This document shows positions 7,107-47,218 of a DNA stretch of 64,000 nucleotides, piece after piece. The notes under the pieces were generated by a model, which worked only from the letters and a program-made list of their open reading frames with translations, ran no database searches and was not told where the DNA came from. Each line of letters opens with the position of its first letter. Position 1 is the stretch's first letter. The translations under genes and the position numbers were made by a program. The DNA is from Saccharopolyspora galaxeae (GTDB taxonomy: Bacteria > Actinomycetota > Actinomycetes > Mycobacteriales > Pseudonocardiaceae): NCBI RefSeq assembly GCF_016526145.1, contig NZ_JADDUE010000004.1, positions 372,001 through 436,000 of the forward strand, in the 5' to 3' direction.

Positions 7107-8750
7107 TCAGTCAGCGCCGCTGAGGACGGTGCGGCGCAGCGCCTTGTAGGCGAGCGCGTCGCACAGCGCCAGCCAGCTCGCCTCGACGATGTTGCCGTGC
7201 ACCCCGACGGTGGTCCACTCGTCCTGATCGTCGCGGGACTCCACCAGCACCCGCGTGACCGCGTCCGTACCCGCGGCGTCGGTGAGGATGCGGACCTTGT
7301 AGTCCACCAGTTCCACCGAGTCCACCCAAGGCAGGTGCGGAACCAGCGCCTTGCGCAACGCGGCGTCGAGGGCGTTGACCGGGCCGTTGCCCTCCGCCGT
7401 GGCGATGACGCGCTCCCCGTCCACGTGGATCTTCACCGTCGCCTCGGAAACGACCGTCCCGTCCGGGCGGTGATCCAGCAGCACCCGGTAGGACTCCAGC
7501 TCGAACGGGGCGTCCACGGCGCCTGCTTCGGCCTCCCCCGCGGCATCCATCTCGCGGCGCAGCAGCAGTTCCAGCGAAGCGTCCGAGCCCTCGAACGACC
7601 AGCCGCGGGCCTCCAGCTCCTTGACCTTGCGCACCGCGCCGGAGACCGCCTCCGGCGAGTCGGACAGGTCCAGCCCGAGCTCGGCGCCCTTGAGCTCCAG
7701 GCTCGCCCGCCCGGCCATCTCGGTGACCAGCACCCGCATCCGGTTGCCGACCACGTCGGGGTCCAGGTGGTTGTAGAGCTCGGGGTCCACCTTGATCGCG
7801 CTGGCGTGCAGCCCGGCCTTGTGCGCGAACGCCGACGACCCGACGTAGGGCTGGTGGGTGTCCGGGGCGAGGTTGGCGATCTCGGACAGCGCGTGCGAGA
7901 CGGTTGTGAGCTCGGTCAGCTTGCCCTCCGGCAGCACCGGCATGTCCAGCTTGGTCGCCAGGTTGCCGAGGACCGCGAACAGGTCGGCGTTGCCCGCGCG
8001 CTCGCCGTATCCGTTGGCGGTGCATTGCACGTGCGTGGCACCGGCCTGCACCGCCGCGATCGAGTTGGCGACCGCGCAGCTGGTGTCGTCCTGGCAGTGG
8101 ATGCCCACCCGGAACCCGGTGCGCGCGACGATCTCCTCGACCGTGGACGCGAGCTGCATCGGCAGCTGCCCGCCGTTGGTGTCGCACAGCACCGACACGT
8201 CGGCGCCCGCGGTCATCGCGGCCTCCAGCACCCGCAGCGAGGCGTCCGGGTCGTGGGCGTAGCCGTCGAAGAAGTGCTCGGCGTCCACGAACACCCGGCG
8301 CCCCTCCCCCACCAGGTAGCGCACGGTGTCTGCGACCATCGCGCAGTTCTCTTCGACCGTGGTGCGCAGCGCCCGCTCCACGTGCCTGCGGTCGGACTTG
8401 GCGACCAGCGTGACGACCGGCGCCTGCGAATCGACCAGCGCCCGCACCTGCGGATCTTCGTGCGCTTGCGCGCCCGCGCGGCGGGTGGAGCCGAACGCGA
8501 CCAGCGCGGCGTGGTCGAGCCGCAGCTCGCCCGCGGCGGCGCGGGCGAAGAACTCGGTGTCCTTCGGCAGCGCGCCCGGCCAGCCGCCTTCGATGAAACC
8601 GACCCCGAGCGAGTCCAGCAGCTTCGCCACCGCGATCTTGTCCGGGACCGAGTAGGAGATCCCTTCCCGCTGGGCGCCGTCGCGCAGCGTGGTGTCGTAG
8701 ACGTGGAAGTCGTCGCCCAGGGGGGTCCCGGCCGGGGTCGTGCGAGTCAC
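7107..8750 (-). CDS. cimA: Citramalate synthase
   Basis: Condenses pyruvate with acetyl-CoA to (R)-citramalate, the first step of the threonine-independent route to 2-ketobutyrate and isoleucine. The HMGL/IPMS signature YDTTLRDGAQREG is near residues 18-30. The stretch EGGWPGALPKDTEFF is typical of CimA rather than LeuA. A C-terminal LeuA-type allosteric dimer domain follows. The usual second metal-ligand His appears as Gln (GIHCQDD), which I believe occurs in actinobacterial members. GTG at 8750 follows an AGGAG site and gives 547 aa. It lies downstream of leuB and is preceded by an Ile leader peptide and terminator. Confidence 0.9.
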   Translation of the reverse strand: MTRTTPAGTPLGDDFHVYDTTLRDGAQREGISYSVPDKIAVAKLLDSLGVGFIEGGWPGALPKDTEFFARAAAGELRLDHAALVAFGSTRRAGAQAHEDPQVRALVDSQAPVVTLVAKSDRRHVERALRTTVEENCAMVADTVRYLVGEGRRVFVDAEHFFDGYAHDPDASLRVLEAAMTAGADVSVLCDTNGGQLPMQLASTVEEIVARTGFRVGIHCQDDTSCAVANSIAAVQAGATHVQCTANGYGERAGNADLFAVLGNLATKLDMPVLPEGKLTELTTVSHALSEIANLAPDTHQPYVGSSAFAHKAGLHASAIKVDPELYNHLDPDVVGNRMRVLVTEMAGRASLELKGAELGLDLSDSPEAVSGAVRKVKELEARGWSFEGSDASLELLLRREMDAAGEAEAGAVDAPFELESYRVLLDHRPDGTVVSEATVKIHVDGERVIATAEGNGPVNALDAALRKALVPHLPWVDSVELVDYKVRILTDAAGTDAVTRVLVESRDDQDEWTTVGVHGNIVEASWLALCDALAYKALRRTVLSGAD

Positions 8751-40913: not shown

Positions 40914-42308
40914 TCAGGTCCCAGCCGCGGCCGCCCGGCGCAGGACCCGCACGGCGCACAGCACCGCGACGCAGGCCAGCAGCAGGTCCAGCGGCACCAC
41001 CCCGGCGGTGGCGGCACCGGGCCGGGACATCGCGGCCACGAGCACTCCGCCCAGCCCCACCAGCAGCGCCTGCCCGAGCATGTCCGAGAGCTGCAGCGCG
41101 GCCGAGTTGAACCCGCGCCGCTGCGGTTCCGACAGCGACAGCACCCGGACCGAGGTGCTGGAGATCGCGATGCCCATGCCCGCACCGCCCAGCGACCACA
41201 GCCCGAACACCGCCCACGCGGGCCCCCAGACCGGCGCGATCAGCACCAGTCCGGCGACCGCGGTAGCCACCAGCAGCAGACCGGCGCCGACCAGGTACTC
41301 CCGCCGGATATCGCGCCGGGAGCTCTGGAAGAACGCGCCGGCCGACCAGCCCAATGATCCGACGGTGAGCGGAATTCCGGCCGTGGCAGGCGAGTAGCCG
41401 TGCACGACCGACAGCGTCAGCGGCACGAACGCCTGCGCGGTGATGAACACCCCCGCGAGCAGCCCGCGCGCGAGCACCATCACCGGAATCCCGGACTGCC
41501 CGCTGAAGGTGCCGCGCGGCAGCAGCATTCGCAGCGACGGAGCCAGCACGACCAGCGCCACGGCGCCGATCACCACGACCGGCACGGAGGTGTTCCCGTC
41601 CGTCGCGGTCTGCGCCGCCCAGTTCACCCCGACGACCCCGGCCGCAGCACCCACCGCAGCCAGCGGCAATCCCGGCGCACCGGCCGGGGATGCGGTCTCA
41701 CCGGCCCCGAGCCGCCGCACCGTCGGCACCAGCAGCAACGCCCCCACCAGCATCAACGGCGCGAGCCCGAGGAAGGTCCAGCGCCAGCTGAGGTGCTCGG
41801 TGAGCAACCCCGTGATCGCGGGCCCGACCAGCGCGGGCACCACCCAGGCCGCGGACAGCGCACCGAACGCGGCAGGCCGATCCCGCTCCGGGTAGACCCT
41901 GGCGATCAGCACGTACAGCGCCACGATCTGCCCACCGGCGCCGATGCCCTGCATGGCGCGCGCCACCAGCAGGCTCGGCATGTCCGGGGCGAATCCGGCG
42001 ATCAGCAGCCCGAGGCCGAAGGTCGGCATCGCCACCAGCAACGGCGCCCCTGGGCCGCGGCGGTCGGCGATGCGCCCGCCGACGACGTTGCCGATCGCGC
42101 TCGCCGCCAGGAAGACGGTGAACGGCCACGAGTACCACTGCTCGGCGTGCAGCTCGCGCACGATCGTCGGCAGGGCGGTGCCGATGCCCATCGCCTCGAA
42201 CGCGGCCAACGTGATCACCAGGACCAGGCCGATGGTGAAGTTCCGCCGCCCCGGGCTCCACAAGGCGCTTTCTGAGGTTCCGTCAACGCGCACCCGGCGA
42301 GCCTGCAA
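40914..42308 (-). CDS. MFS multidrug exporter
   Basis: 464 aa from TTG 42308, or 459 from GTG 42293. About 14 hydrophobic segments are seen. The opening NFTIGLVLVITLAAFEAMGIGTALPTI and GGRIADRRGPGAPLL are MFS motifs. The antiporter motif C appears as VVPALVGPAITGLLTEHLSW. It belongs to the DHA2-like efflux proteins of actinomycetes. It is divergent from the SRPBCC gene. The 98-bp gap holds a CTTGCAC/GTACAAG inverted repeat. Confidence 0.85.
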   Translation of the reverse strand: MQARRVRVDGTSESALWSPGRRNFTIGLVLVITLAAFEAMGIGTALPTIVRELHAEQWYSWPFTVFLAASAIGNVVGGRIADRRGPGAPLLVAMPTFGLGLLIAGFAPDMPSLLVARAMQGIGAGGQIVALYVLIARVYPERDRPAAFGALSAAWVVPALVGPAITGLLTEHLSWRWTFLGLAPLMLVGALLLVPTVRRLGAGETASPAGAPGLPLAAVGAAAGVVGVNWAAQTATDGNTSVPVVVIGAVALVVLAPSLRMLLPRGTFSGQSGIPVMVLARGLLAGVFITAQAFVPLTLSVVHGYSPATAGIPLTVGSLGWSAGAFFQSSRRDIRREYLVGAGLLLVATAVAGLVLIAPVWGPAWAVFGLWSLGGAGMGIAISSTSVRVLSLSEPQRRGFNSAALQLSDMLGQALLVGLGGVLVAAMSRPGAATAGVVPLDLLLACVAVLCAVRVLRRAAAAGT

Positions 42309-45527: not shown

Positions 45528-45548
45528 AGCACATTTGCGGAATGTGCT
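45528..45548. promoter_or_regulatory. Operator candidate upstream of the small-ORF/YcaO genes
   Basis: AGCACATT and AATGTGCT form a perfect 8-bp inverted repeat across TGCGG. It lies 116 bp before the small ORF and 32 bp upstream of a possible -35 (TTGACG at 45581), with CAAACT at 45605 as a weak -10. This AT-rich symmetry stands out in the local sequence and suits a dimeric regulator. Confidence 0.5.
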
Positions 45549-45664
45549 ACTTCCGTCGTAGTCCATCCGAATGCGCCCCGTTGACGCGATCTCGCCCACC
45601 CGCGCAAACTCCGAATGCGCACAATGGGCTCATCGCCCGCGTCGACCCCGCAACGGAGGAAAAA

Positions 45665-45808
45665 ATGGGTGTTCTCATTGCCAAGGATATTGCCGCCGCA
45701 CGAGCGGAAAAGCTCGAACTGTCGAAGGCCGAGCAGCAGGTGATCGCGCACCTCGTTCGCGAGCACCAGCAGCAGGACCAGCAGCGGACCGGCGCAGCAA
45801 AGCGCTGA
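45665..45808 (+). CDS. Small protein (47 aa), possible YcaO substrate peptide
   Basis: ATG 45665 follows an excellent site (GGAGGAAAAA). The peptide starts MGVLIAKDIAAARAEKLELS, is predicted helical, and ends Gln/Arg/Lys-rich (HQQQDQQRTGAAKR). It has no Cys, only one Ser and one Thr, so it is not an azoline-type core. It lies 168 bp before a YcaO gene. Whether it is a RiPP precursor, a helper peptide or an unrelated small protein is unknown. Confidence 0.65.
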   Translation: MGVLIAKDIAAARAEKLELSKAEQQVIAHLVREHQQQDQQRTGAAKR

Positions 45809-45814
45809 CGACGT

Positions 45815-45852
45815 GGGCACCCGGCGCAAGCGGCACACCTCGCCGGGTGCCC
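45815..45852. terminator. Strong hairpin between the small ORF and the YcaO gene
   Basis: GGGCACCCGGCG and CGCCGGGTGCCC form a perfect 12-bp stem across a 14-base loop, seven bp after the small-ORF stop. There is no T-run, so it is probably a partial terminator or an mRNA-stabilising hairpin, giving more small-ORF than YcaO mRNA. Confidence 0.5.
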
Positions 45853-45976
45853 GGCCGAAATCCACCACGCAGCCGACCGTGCGGTTTCAGCAACGATTCC
45901 TGTTCAGCGCGAACGAATTGTCCGCGAATCGCTTGCACCGCTCCCACGAACACTCGATCAAAAGCGAGGCGTTGCA

Positions 45977-47218
45977 TTGCGCACCATCGACGGAGATCAG
46001 CACGCGCAAGCCGGTGAGCGGTCCTGCGACTGGCGGACGGCGCTGTCGAACGGCGAGCGAGCCGTCCGGCGGTTCGGGTGGACCGCAGAACTCGACCCGC
46101 TCGGCGATGACCCCGCGCTGTGGCGGTGCGTCCTGCACGACCGCAACGGCGAGCCGGTGCCGAGCGGAGCAGGCTCCGGCAAGGGATACCGGCTGCCCGC
46201 CCAGGTCGGGGCGATCTTCGAGGCGCTGGAGCACCACTTCGGCCGCGAGCAGCACAAGACCCCCGACATCGTCCTGCGCTCAGCGCGCGAAGCCGCCACC
46301 GAGCTGACCGGTGATGTCGTGGGCGCCCGCCTCGCGGAAGGCCCCGACGAGCCGATCGCCTGCCTGCCGTTCCGGAACCTGTCCGACGACGCGGCGACCC
46401 TGCTGCCGGCGTTCCTGACGTCTCCCGACTACGTCAGCGACGCCTTCGAGCCGGAACGCCGCGAACTCGGCGACACCTACGACTACGCGGGCGTGCTGCG
46501 CTATTCGCTCAACAGCGGCTGCGCGGCGGGTTCCACGCGGGAAGAGGCCACCGTCCACGCGATCAACGAGATCGTGGAGCGCGACGCCTTCTCGCTGATG
46601 CTGATCAACACGTTCCTCGCCGCAAGCCCGGCGCCGCTGACCGTCGTCGACCCCGCTACCCTTCCCGACAACCTCGCCGAACTGCACGGGATCGCGCGGC
46701 AACGCAGCGGCGGGAGCGTGCAGCTCATCGACATGACGACGAGCCTCGGAATCCCCGCCGTGCTCGCTTACCTCCCGCCGCAGCCCGGTGAACCGGCGCG
46801 AGTGCGCGGTGCAGGCGCGTCGTTGTCCCGCGAGCACGCCATCCGGCGGGCGCTGATCGAGCTGCTGCAACTAATGGCGGGCAGCACGCAACGCGAAGAC
46901 GAAGACAAGGAACGGGACTGGACCGCCGAGTACCCGCCGTTCCACGACTGCTACCTGATGAACCTCGGCCCGAGGCTGCTCGAAGCCGAGGTGGTGCCGT
47001 ACGCACCGACCATCGCCCCGGGCGCTCCGGACGGCCACCTGGAACGGCTCGTTCGCATCCTCACCTCGCACGGCTTCACCCCGCTCGTGCGCGAGCTGCA
47101 CACCAGCGCGGAGCTGACCGTGGTCAGCACCGTCGTGCCAGGACTCGAACGCTTCATGGTGATCACCGACGGCCAACTGGTCGTTCCCGGTCCGCGCGGG
47201 CTCGCCGCCCGGCCCTGA
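45977..47218 (+). CDS. YcaO-domain protein (standalone cyclodehydratase-type ATPase)
   Basis: A 413-aa YcaO enzyme. The core ATP-binding segment is GCAAGSTREEATVHAINEIV then ERDAF, giving the SxxxE and ExxER motifs, with RALIELLQ later. YcaO enzymes phosphorylate peptide amides to make azolines, thioamides or macroamidines. The PxPxP azoline-type C-terminus is absent (it ends near VVPGPRGLAARP), and no E1-like or TfuA partner is near. TTG 45977 follows GAGG at 7 bp. It is downstream of the 47-aa ORF and convergent with etfA. Confidence 0.82.
   Translation: MRTIDGDQHAQAGERSCDWRTALSNGERAVRRFGWTAELDPLGDDPALWRCVLHDRNGEPVPSGAGSGKGYRLPAQVGAIFEALEHHFGREQHKTPDIVLRSAREAATELTGDVVGARLAEGPDEPIACLPFRNLSDDAATLLPAFLTSPDYVSDAFEPERRELGDTYDYAGVLRYSLNSGCAAGSTREEATVHAINEIVERDAFSLMLINTFLAASPAPLTVVDPATLPDNLAELHGIARQRSGGSVQLIDMTTSLGIPAVLAYLPPQPGEPARVRGAGASLSREHAIRRALIELLQLMAGSTQREDEDKERDWTAEYPPFHDCYLMNLGPRLLEAEVVPYAPTIAPGAPDGHLERLVRILTSHGFTPLVRELHTSAELTVVSTVVPGLERFMVITDGQLVVPGPRGLAARP

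What the first reader, a model, noticed from the sequence alone, without database searches (positions are those of the whole stretch)
45528..47218. Small-ORF plus standalone YcaO locus: possible new RiPP or peptide-modifying system
A 47-aa ORF with an excellent ribosome site, a perfect upstream palindrome, a strong hairpin after it, then a YcaO gene with the ATP-binding motifs but without the PxPxP azoline tail or E1/TfuA partners. The peptide has no Cys and only one Ser and one Thr, so a usual azoline product is unlikely; amidine, thioamide or another backbone change is more plausible. The locus sits alone between rnhA and etfA, not in a large cluster. This is the best candidate in the window for an undescribed system.
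Basis: partly seen in the sequence, partly recalled or inferred. Interest (0 to 1): 0.75.

Follow-up and report, generated by a model that had tools for sequence, protein, structure and literature searches.

The report
Minimal bottromycin-like peptide and cyclase pair
A two-gene unit, a short peptide plus one YcaO enzyme related to the enzyme that closes the ring of the antibiotic bottromycin, recurs in many bacteria and probably makes ring-closed peptides by a stripped-down version of the bottromycin route.

Summary
In detail: a 47-aa ORF with a strong ribosome site, an 8-bp palindrome, a 12-bp hairpin and an intact standalone YcaO lie between rnhA and etfA. The pair is conserved. In 27 of 27 loci with the YcaO 5' end held (window included, some close kin), a short ORF starting Met-Gly (23) or Met-Ala (4) sits just upstream; two YcaO fragments had none. 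Of 87 comparable ORFs upstream of 243 other genes, 10 start so.

The peptide has a variable N-terminal and a conserved C-terminal part (12% versus 83% identity among five tandem copies): a RiPP precursor with N-terminal core and follower, as in bottromycin. Among the characterised YcaOs compared, the nearest is the bottromycin macroamidine enzyme BtmF (29% over 421 columns, E 2e-28); the thiazoline and streptamidine YcaOs match far worse. In a same-genus genome the pair sits inside a bottromycin cluster.

Best reading: Met is removed, and the YcaO joins the freed Gly amine to a backbone amide (N-terminal amidine). The chemistry is inferred. Neither a bottromycin nor a streptamidine cluster: a new variant of the bottromycin kind.

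The parts
45528..45548 (.). Perfect palindrome (8-bp arms, 5-nt spacer) 116 bp upstream of the peptide start; possible operator, role unknown
   Evidence: one place in the genome at up to 2 mismatches; also present in the same-species strain, where the whole stretch is nearly identical, so conservation says little
45655..45660 (+). Shine-Dalgarno GGAGGA
45665..45808 (+). Precursor peptide gene, 47 aa, MGVLIAKDIAAARAEKLELSKAEQQVIAHLVREHQQQDQQRTGAAKR
   Evidence: similar peptides upstream of the relatives' YcaO genes
45668..45697 (+). Proposed N-terminal core, starting at Gly2 (its end is inferred)
   Evidence: variable part in another locus; the two tandem peptides of the sister strain differ here
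45713..45757 (+). Follower motif LELSKAEQQVIAHLV
45815..45852 (+). 12-bp perfect hairpin after the peptide stop, no T-run; possible attenuator or stability element setting the peptide:enzyme ratio (inferred)
   Evidence: stems after the peptide also in L018, L019, L020, L022, L027, L016, L041; clearly better than shuffles only in L018, L041 and L016
45977..47218 (+). Standalone YcaO, 413 aa, TTG start (uncertain), relative of the bottromycin macroamidine YcaO BtmF

Best explanation
A minimal bottromycin-type RiPP unit. Shown: a precursor gene and one standalone YcaO gene are linked across phyla; the precursor has an N-terminal core that begins Gly (or Ala) after Met and, in most Actinomycetota members, a recognisable C-terminal follower; the YcaO is closest, among the characterised enzymes compared, to the bottromycin macroamidine synthase. 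Inferred: the follower docks the peptide on the YcaO without an E1-like partner; the host methionine aminopeptidase removes Met (allowed by Gly/Ala; bottromycin's MGP needs its own peptidase); the YcaO activates a backbone amide with ATP and the free Gly amine attacks it, giving an N-terminal (macro)amidine, by analogy Gly1 to residue 4 (GVLI ring, loss of 18 Da); a host or, in some loci, a local hydrolase removes the follower; export is by MFS or ABC exporters where present.
For: Conserved pairing with control. Core/follower split: 8 of 66 versus 208 of 250 identical positions among five tandem precursors. Vibrio and Eubacterium precursors share the N-terminus MGNKRSEI/MGKKRSEI while the rest differs, so there the N-terminus looks like the kept product part. 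Family HMM: BtmF 198 and 184 bits, BtmE 41 and 49, best non-family YcaO of the bottromycin producers' genus 84 (L070), AmiD 14; BLASTP E 2e-28 for BtmF versus 0.08 (BtmE) and 2e-4 (AmiD). Bottromycin followers fit the family follower profile better than most shuffles (41 and 2 of 2000 as good); the streptamidine precursor does not (1708 of 2000). Same-genus genome G005: the pair lies between the O-methyltransferase (63% id, LCM family) and MFS (66% id) genes of a bottromycin cluster. Papers: BtmF takes part in macrocyclisation, Met removal is needed and MGP is a poor substrate for host aminopeptidases (PMC5103208, passages); both bottromycin YcaOs act without partners and the precursor has a follower (PMC7136475, passages); follower removal makes macrocyclisation irreversible (PMC10885120, passages).
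Against: No product or activity is known. YcaO homology does not fix chemistry: relatives make azolines, thioamides and several amidines. In the wider tree the set of MG-peptide YcaOs plus BtmF is not recovered as one clade (not rejected either, p-AU 0.205). PMC5103208 reported that BtmF works with a partner, BtmI, and the genome has no close BtmI: one 106-aa match at 37%. Core sequences share no motif around residues 4-5. Two loci carry a nitroreductase/SagB-type dehydrogenase, which hints at azole chemistry there. Synonymous/non-synonymous counts in close relatives give only weak evidence of selection on the peptide. Follower similarity is faint in the Ala-starting, Vibrio and M. chelonae peptides.
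Confidence: 0.6

Rival explanations
1. A RiPP precursor-YcaO pair, but with another YcaO reaction: azoline at a core Ser/Thr/Cys, a thioamide, or a backbone amidine of the kind reported for ItfB.
For: YcaO chemistry is diverse; a nitroreductase-family/SagB gene follows the YcaO in L016 and L119; some cores hold Cys, Ser or Thr. ItfB: PMC10352776, passages.
Against: The window peptide has one Ser (in the follower), one Thr (near the C-terminus) and no Cys; no PxPxP tail and no E1-like gene among 11 neighbours scanned; Gly/Ala at position 2 is not needed for these reactions (recalled); the nearest characterised relative compared is BtmF.
Confidence: 0.25
2. A member of the streptamidine family (ami clusters).
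For: Also a standalone actinobacterial YcaO with a Ser/Thr/Cys-poor precursor and an amidine product (PMC8442711).
Against: AmiA and its ALV motif differ; AmiD aligns best over 65 aa only; no Fec transporter, hydrolase or dehydrogenase like those of ami clusters among 11 neighbours scanned.
Confidence: 0.03
3. The small protein is not a substrate but a regulator or antitoxin-like partner of the YcaO, which modifies another protein.
For: Weak CcdA-like hit below cut-off (E 0.034, 14.9 bits against 22.4).
Against: N-terminal variability, tandem copies (2 in L028, 5 in L016), exporters next to several relatives, fit of the bottromycin follower.
Confidence: 0.08
4. The pair is a decaying remnant in this strain: the window peptide is a recombinant of two tandem copies.
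For: Window peptide equals copy 1 of the sister strain up to the follower and copy 2 for most of the rest; damaged relatives exist (L026, L116; frameshifts in L016 and L041).
Against: Frame, ribosome site, follower and YcaO are intact in both strains; YcaO differences are few (9 synonymous, 16 not).
Confidence: 0.04

Closest known systems
Bottromycin biosynthesis (precursor BtmD/BotA, YcaO BtmF/BotCD)
   Same: MG start, N-terminal core, C-terminal follower of similar pattern (ELSxxExxxLE), standalone YcaO of the BtmF type (29% id); a same-genus genome carries a bottromycin cluster with this pair inside it
   Different: One YcaO instead of two; no match in the genome to the bottromycin radical SAM protein searched; no P450, amidohydrolase or peptidase among 11 neighbours scanned; no core Cys; precursor does not hit NF033414; Gly is followed by a residue other than Pro
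Streptamidine (ami) family
   Same: Standalone YcaO, azoline-poor precursor, amidine product
   Different: Core in the middle of the precursor, ALV motif, AmiB/AmiC/AmiE needed, distant YcaO
Klebsazolicin N-terminal amidine
   Same: Amidine formed at the N-terminus of the core
   Different: LAP with leader, cyclodehydratase partners and azoles (PMC7136475 passages)
ItfB backbone amidine
   Same: YcaO-made amidine in a RiPP

Membership tests
Bottromycin | Precursor recognised by NF033414 (bottro_RiPP) | tested here: not met
   0 of 11 family peptides tried hit; true bottromycin precursors score 114 bits
Bottromycin | N-terminal core after Met-Gly, C-terminal follower | tested here: met
   (architecture by sequence; processing not tested)
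Bottromycin | Macroamidine YcaO (BtmF type) | tested here: inconclusive
   closest characterised homologue of those compared, but a clade with BtmF is neither shown nor rejected
Bottromycin | Second, thiazoline-forming YcaO (BtmE) | tested here: not met
   one PF02624 match in the genome
Bottromycin | Radical SAM C-methyltransferases | tested here: not met
   no match in the own genome to one of the three (PF04055 + PF02310); the tool notes that an empty answer without a positive control shows little; the same protein finds its homologues in G005 by BLASTP
Bottromycin | Amidohydrolase for follower removal | tested here: not met
   only a 106-aa match at 37%, on another contig; none among neighbours
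Bottromycin | M17 aminopeptidase in the cluster | tested here: not met
   none among 11 neighbours scanned; not searched genome-wide
Streptamidine | Precursor with motif A or B and ALV | tested here: not met
   judged from AmiA-type sequences; motif B was not seen and not tested
Streptamidine | AmiD-clade YcaO | tested here: not met
   AmiD is a long branch
Streptamidine | AmiB, AmiC, AmiE, FecBCDE neighbours | tested here: not met
   window neighbours by Pfam; relatives by gene listing only
Azoline RiPPs (TOMM/LAP) | E1-like or Ocin-ThiF partner and PxPxP C-terminus | tested here: not met
   SagD-family model 85 bits, cut-off 219; genome not searched for E1-like genes
Thioamide RiPPs | TfuA partner | tested here: not met
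   no TfuA domain among 11 neighbours scanned; not searched genome-wide
Any amidine RiPP | Amidine in the product | not testable with these tools
   needs mass spectrometry or NMR

The most novel reading that the evidence does not exclude
A phylum-spanning RiPP class, not found described in the searches made here, in which one partner-free BtmF-like YcaO acts on an MG/MA-starting precursor through a C-terminal follower to make an N-terminal macroamidine; bottromycin would be one elaborate member that added a second YcaO and methyltransferases, and the bare pair would be the smallest macrocyclase system of this chemistry, able to accept very different cores.
Probability: 0.45. Interest if true: 0.85.

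Novelty: new variant of a known kind. Interest (0 to 1): 0.7.

Why it matters
The bottromycin macroamidine is a rare chemistry known from one antibiotic family. A widespread two-gene version with variable cores would give a simple, testable route to N-terminal macroamidine peptides, bear on where the bottromycin enzymes come from, and explain a set of unnamed standalone YcaO genes in Actinomycetota, Vibrio, Pantoea and a Eubacterium MAG (Bacillota).

Tried and rejected
Streptamidine membership: rejected on precursor, YcaO and neighbours. Azoline TOMM: rejected on partner, tail and residue content. Antitoxin-like reading (CcdA, E 0.034): not supported. Palindrome as a regulon site: only one place in the genome. 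Hairpin as significant structure: in the window the stretch is not better than shuffles; of nine intergenic stretches folded, clearly better only in L018 (0 of 200 shuffles as good), L041 (2) and L016 (5). Codon-level selection on the peptide: counts small and mixed. NF033414 over 394 class genomes: 50 with a match at E up to 1, none over the cut-off, taken as chance. A control on non-family YcaO loci had only 3 usable loci (0 of 3 with an MG/MA peptide).

Full report
What is there. Pfam gives YcaO E 1.5e-45; NCBIfam gives only sub-cut-off matches (SagD-type 85 bits against 219), and the peptide has no match above a cut-off. One YcaO was found in the genome. Eleven neighbouring genes scanned with Pfam look unrelated: aminotransferase class V, MFS, AHSA1, acyltransferase, GNAT, RNase H, two ETF subunits, DegV, GH57, glycosyltransferase. 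The MFS gene (40914-42293) is several genes away from the pair and a link is not shown.

Conservation of the pair. The YcaO was searched in 6 genus genomes (3 with a match, own included), 397 order genomes (11 with E up to 1e-40, own and same species included), 394 class genomes (7 with E up to 1e-60, own included), 101 genomes of one genus that I take to be Streptomyces (29 with E up to 1e-8, among them two long family members and one fragment), the GTDB contigs (2 loci) and plasmid records (137 with a match, 9 covering at least 80% of the query; 6 records looked at). By one rule I asked whether a 28-60 aa ORF with a good ribosome site (score 5 or 6 of 6) ends near the YcaO start, which for some loci is my estimate. 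All 21 loci had such an ORF, and 20 had an ATG-started one whose second residue is Gly or Ala. In the 21st (L042) the rule's only candidate is another ORF; MGNSNSN... with ribosome score 4 was chosen by hand. L019, L040, L041, L016 and L017 had further candidates besides the one taken. Under a laxer rule (score 4 or more) all 6 plasmid loci also have one, four of them annotated as hypothetical proteins; L119-L124 except L120's nearest also had other candidates under that lax rule. Together 27 of 27 (window included): Gly in 23, Ala in 4 (L025, L038, L039, L040). They are not independent: L028 is the same species as the window, and L019-L022 and L023-L024 are close kin. As control, 67 of 243 other called genes in these stretches had any candidate (ATG or GTG), and 10 of 87 candidates began with Gly or Ala after the start. 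Two YcaO fragments (L026, L116) had no such peptide. The peptide ends within about 11 nt of the called YcaO start in L023, L024, L037, L039, L040 and L042, which fits translational coupling.

A RiPP precursor with the core in front. In Actinomadura L016 five tandem precursors share 8 of 66 positions before the DHA motif and 208 of 250 after it (the third copy has CTG where the others have ATG). The same-species strain has two tandem precursors with different N-termini; the window's peptide is a recombinant, N-part of copy 1 and mostly the C-part of copy 2. Conversely, precursors of a Eubacterium MAG (Bacillota) and two Vibrio share MGNKRSEI/MGKKRSEI while the rest differs. Both patterns point to an N-terminal core. 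Exporters or tailoring genes follow the YcaO in some loci: ABC transporters (L017; L121 and L122 as annotated), MFS (L027, L042; L124, second gene after it), alpha/beta hydrolase (L018, L041), methyltransferase (L120; a divergent upstream gene in L038-L041, tested by Pfam for L038 and L041), nitroreductase/SagB (L016, second gene after it; L119).

The bottromycin link. Searching the NCBI bottromycin precursor model in 392 genomes of the same large genus gave two loci; the precursor, read from DNA, is MGPVVVFDCMTADFLNDDPNNAELSALEMEELESWGAWDGEATS. The family HMM scores the second YcaO after the precursor at 198 and 184 bits and the first at 41 and 49. I name these BtmF and BtmE by gene order, which is recalled and fits the lettering BtmD, E, F; the functions are from passages of PMC5103208. 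Pfam confirms the labels of other genes in that cluster: radical SAM with B12 domain (one of the three tested), P450, amidohydrolase, alpha/beta hydrolase, LCM-type methyltransferase, MFS. Pairwise: BtmF 29% over 421 columns, E 2e-28; BtmE E 0.08; AmiD of streptamidine E 2e-4 over 65 aa. BotA followers fit the family follower profile (41 and 2 of 2000 shuffles as good), the streptamidine precursor does not (1708 of 2000). The signal is modest for one of the two BotA sequences, and the profile was built from 13 precursors; Ala-starting, Eubacterium and plasmid precursors and some near-duplicates were left out of it.

The link inside the genus. Genome G005, same genus as the window, holds a bottromycin cluster syntenic with the one above (precursor 82%, BtmF 68%, BtmE 56%, three radical SAM proteins about 70%, P450 61%, amidohydrolase 58%; an M17 peptidase was not looked for). 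The family's own precursor plus YcaO lies between its O-methyltransferase (63%) and its MFS exporter (66%), which are about 180 bp apart in the other genome. A bottromycin cluster in Saccharopolyspora is already in print (PMC10145562, passages), without mention of this pair in the passages seen; that the window's genus is Saccharopolyspora is my guess.

Tree. In a 36-row tree BtmF falls among the family (fork of 23 rows 81/81; in a fork of 5 with L042 and the Eubacterium YcaO 93/86), with BtmE next to that fork and AmiD and TOMM YcaOs across a 97/97 branch. With plasmid relatives added and close kin dropped (34 rows), deep forks are weak, BtmE becomes a very long branch of uncertain place, and the MG-peptide YcaOs plus BtmF are not one clade in the best tree, though this is not rejected (p-AU 0.205). 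So 'nearest characterised relative among those compared' is firm, 'same clade as BtmF to the exclusion of others' is not.

Mechanism. Shown: gene pairing, precursor architecture, homology. Inferred: follower docking, Met removal by the host, attack of the Gly/Ala amine on an ATP-activated amide, follower removal. Bottromycin needs a dedicated aminopeptidase because host enzymes work poorly on MGP; none of the family precursors read has Pro at position 3, and no peptidase is among the 11 window neighbours scanned, which fits. The restriction to Gly/Ala is tighter than methionine aminopeptidase needs (recalled), which suggests that the freed amine itself takes part. Against a fully partner-free enzyme stands the report that BtmI helps BtmF; PMC7136475 states that the bottromycin YcaOs act without partners.

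What is known. Searches for streptamidine and YcaO, standalone YcaO and amidine, bottromycin and follower, macroamidine, bottromycin and Saccharopolyspora, and YcaO with Vibrio listed no paper whose title or abstract start describes this pair; most listed papers were not opened. Cox 2015 calls standalone YcaO clusters harder to mine (PMC4603692, passages). Russell 2021 mined standalone actinobacterial YcaOs and reported a series of peptide families in a supplement that I could not read (PMC8442711, parts 1-3 of 5 and passages), so the family may be listed there without a name. Schwalen 2017 was not held and Franz 2017 was not looked up; both are cited as given in PMC7136475 and PMC6511847 (passages).

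Verdict. A real, widespread RiPP-like unit; most likely a minimal bottromycin-type macroamidine system; chemistry untested.

Noticed in passing
L027 1058-12640 and L117 (genome G005, same genus): Bottromycin-type cluster with precursor MGPAVVFDCMTADFLNDDPNNAELSELEMRELESWGSWSDENGSVE, plus an extra precursor-YcaO pair inside it.
   Followed up: partly
L016 6872-7660: Five tandem precursor copies with unlike cores; the third has CTG where the others have ATG. The YcaO frame after them is shifted near its 5' end.
   Followed up: partly
L017 1711-1869, L121 7830-7955, L122 about 7723-7845: Precursors from a Eubacterium MAG and two Vibrio share the N-terminus MG[NK]KRSEI although the hosts are in different phyla; each YcaO is followed by an ABC transporter gene.
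   Followed up: partly
L019-L022, upstream of the pair: A divergent regulator gene of one cluster flanks the pair in all four loci; BTAD/NB-ARC by Pfam in L019, the one tested.
   Followed up: no
L124 (Mycobacteroides chelonae plasmid pMchErm55) 4821-6290: A small MG-starting protein gene and a distant YcaO of this kind sit on a plasmid, followed by a hypothetical gene and an MFS gene.
   Followed up: no
window 45806-45976: The peptide's TGA is the stop directly upstream of the YcaO frame, so both lie in one frame with 56 open codons between; probably coincidence.
   Followed up: no
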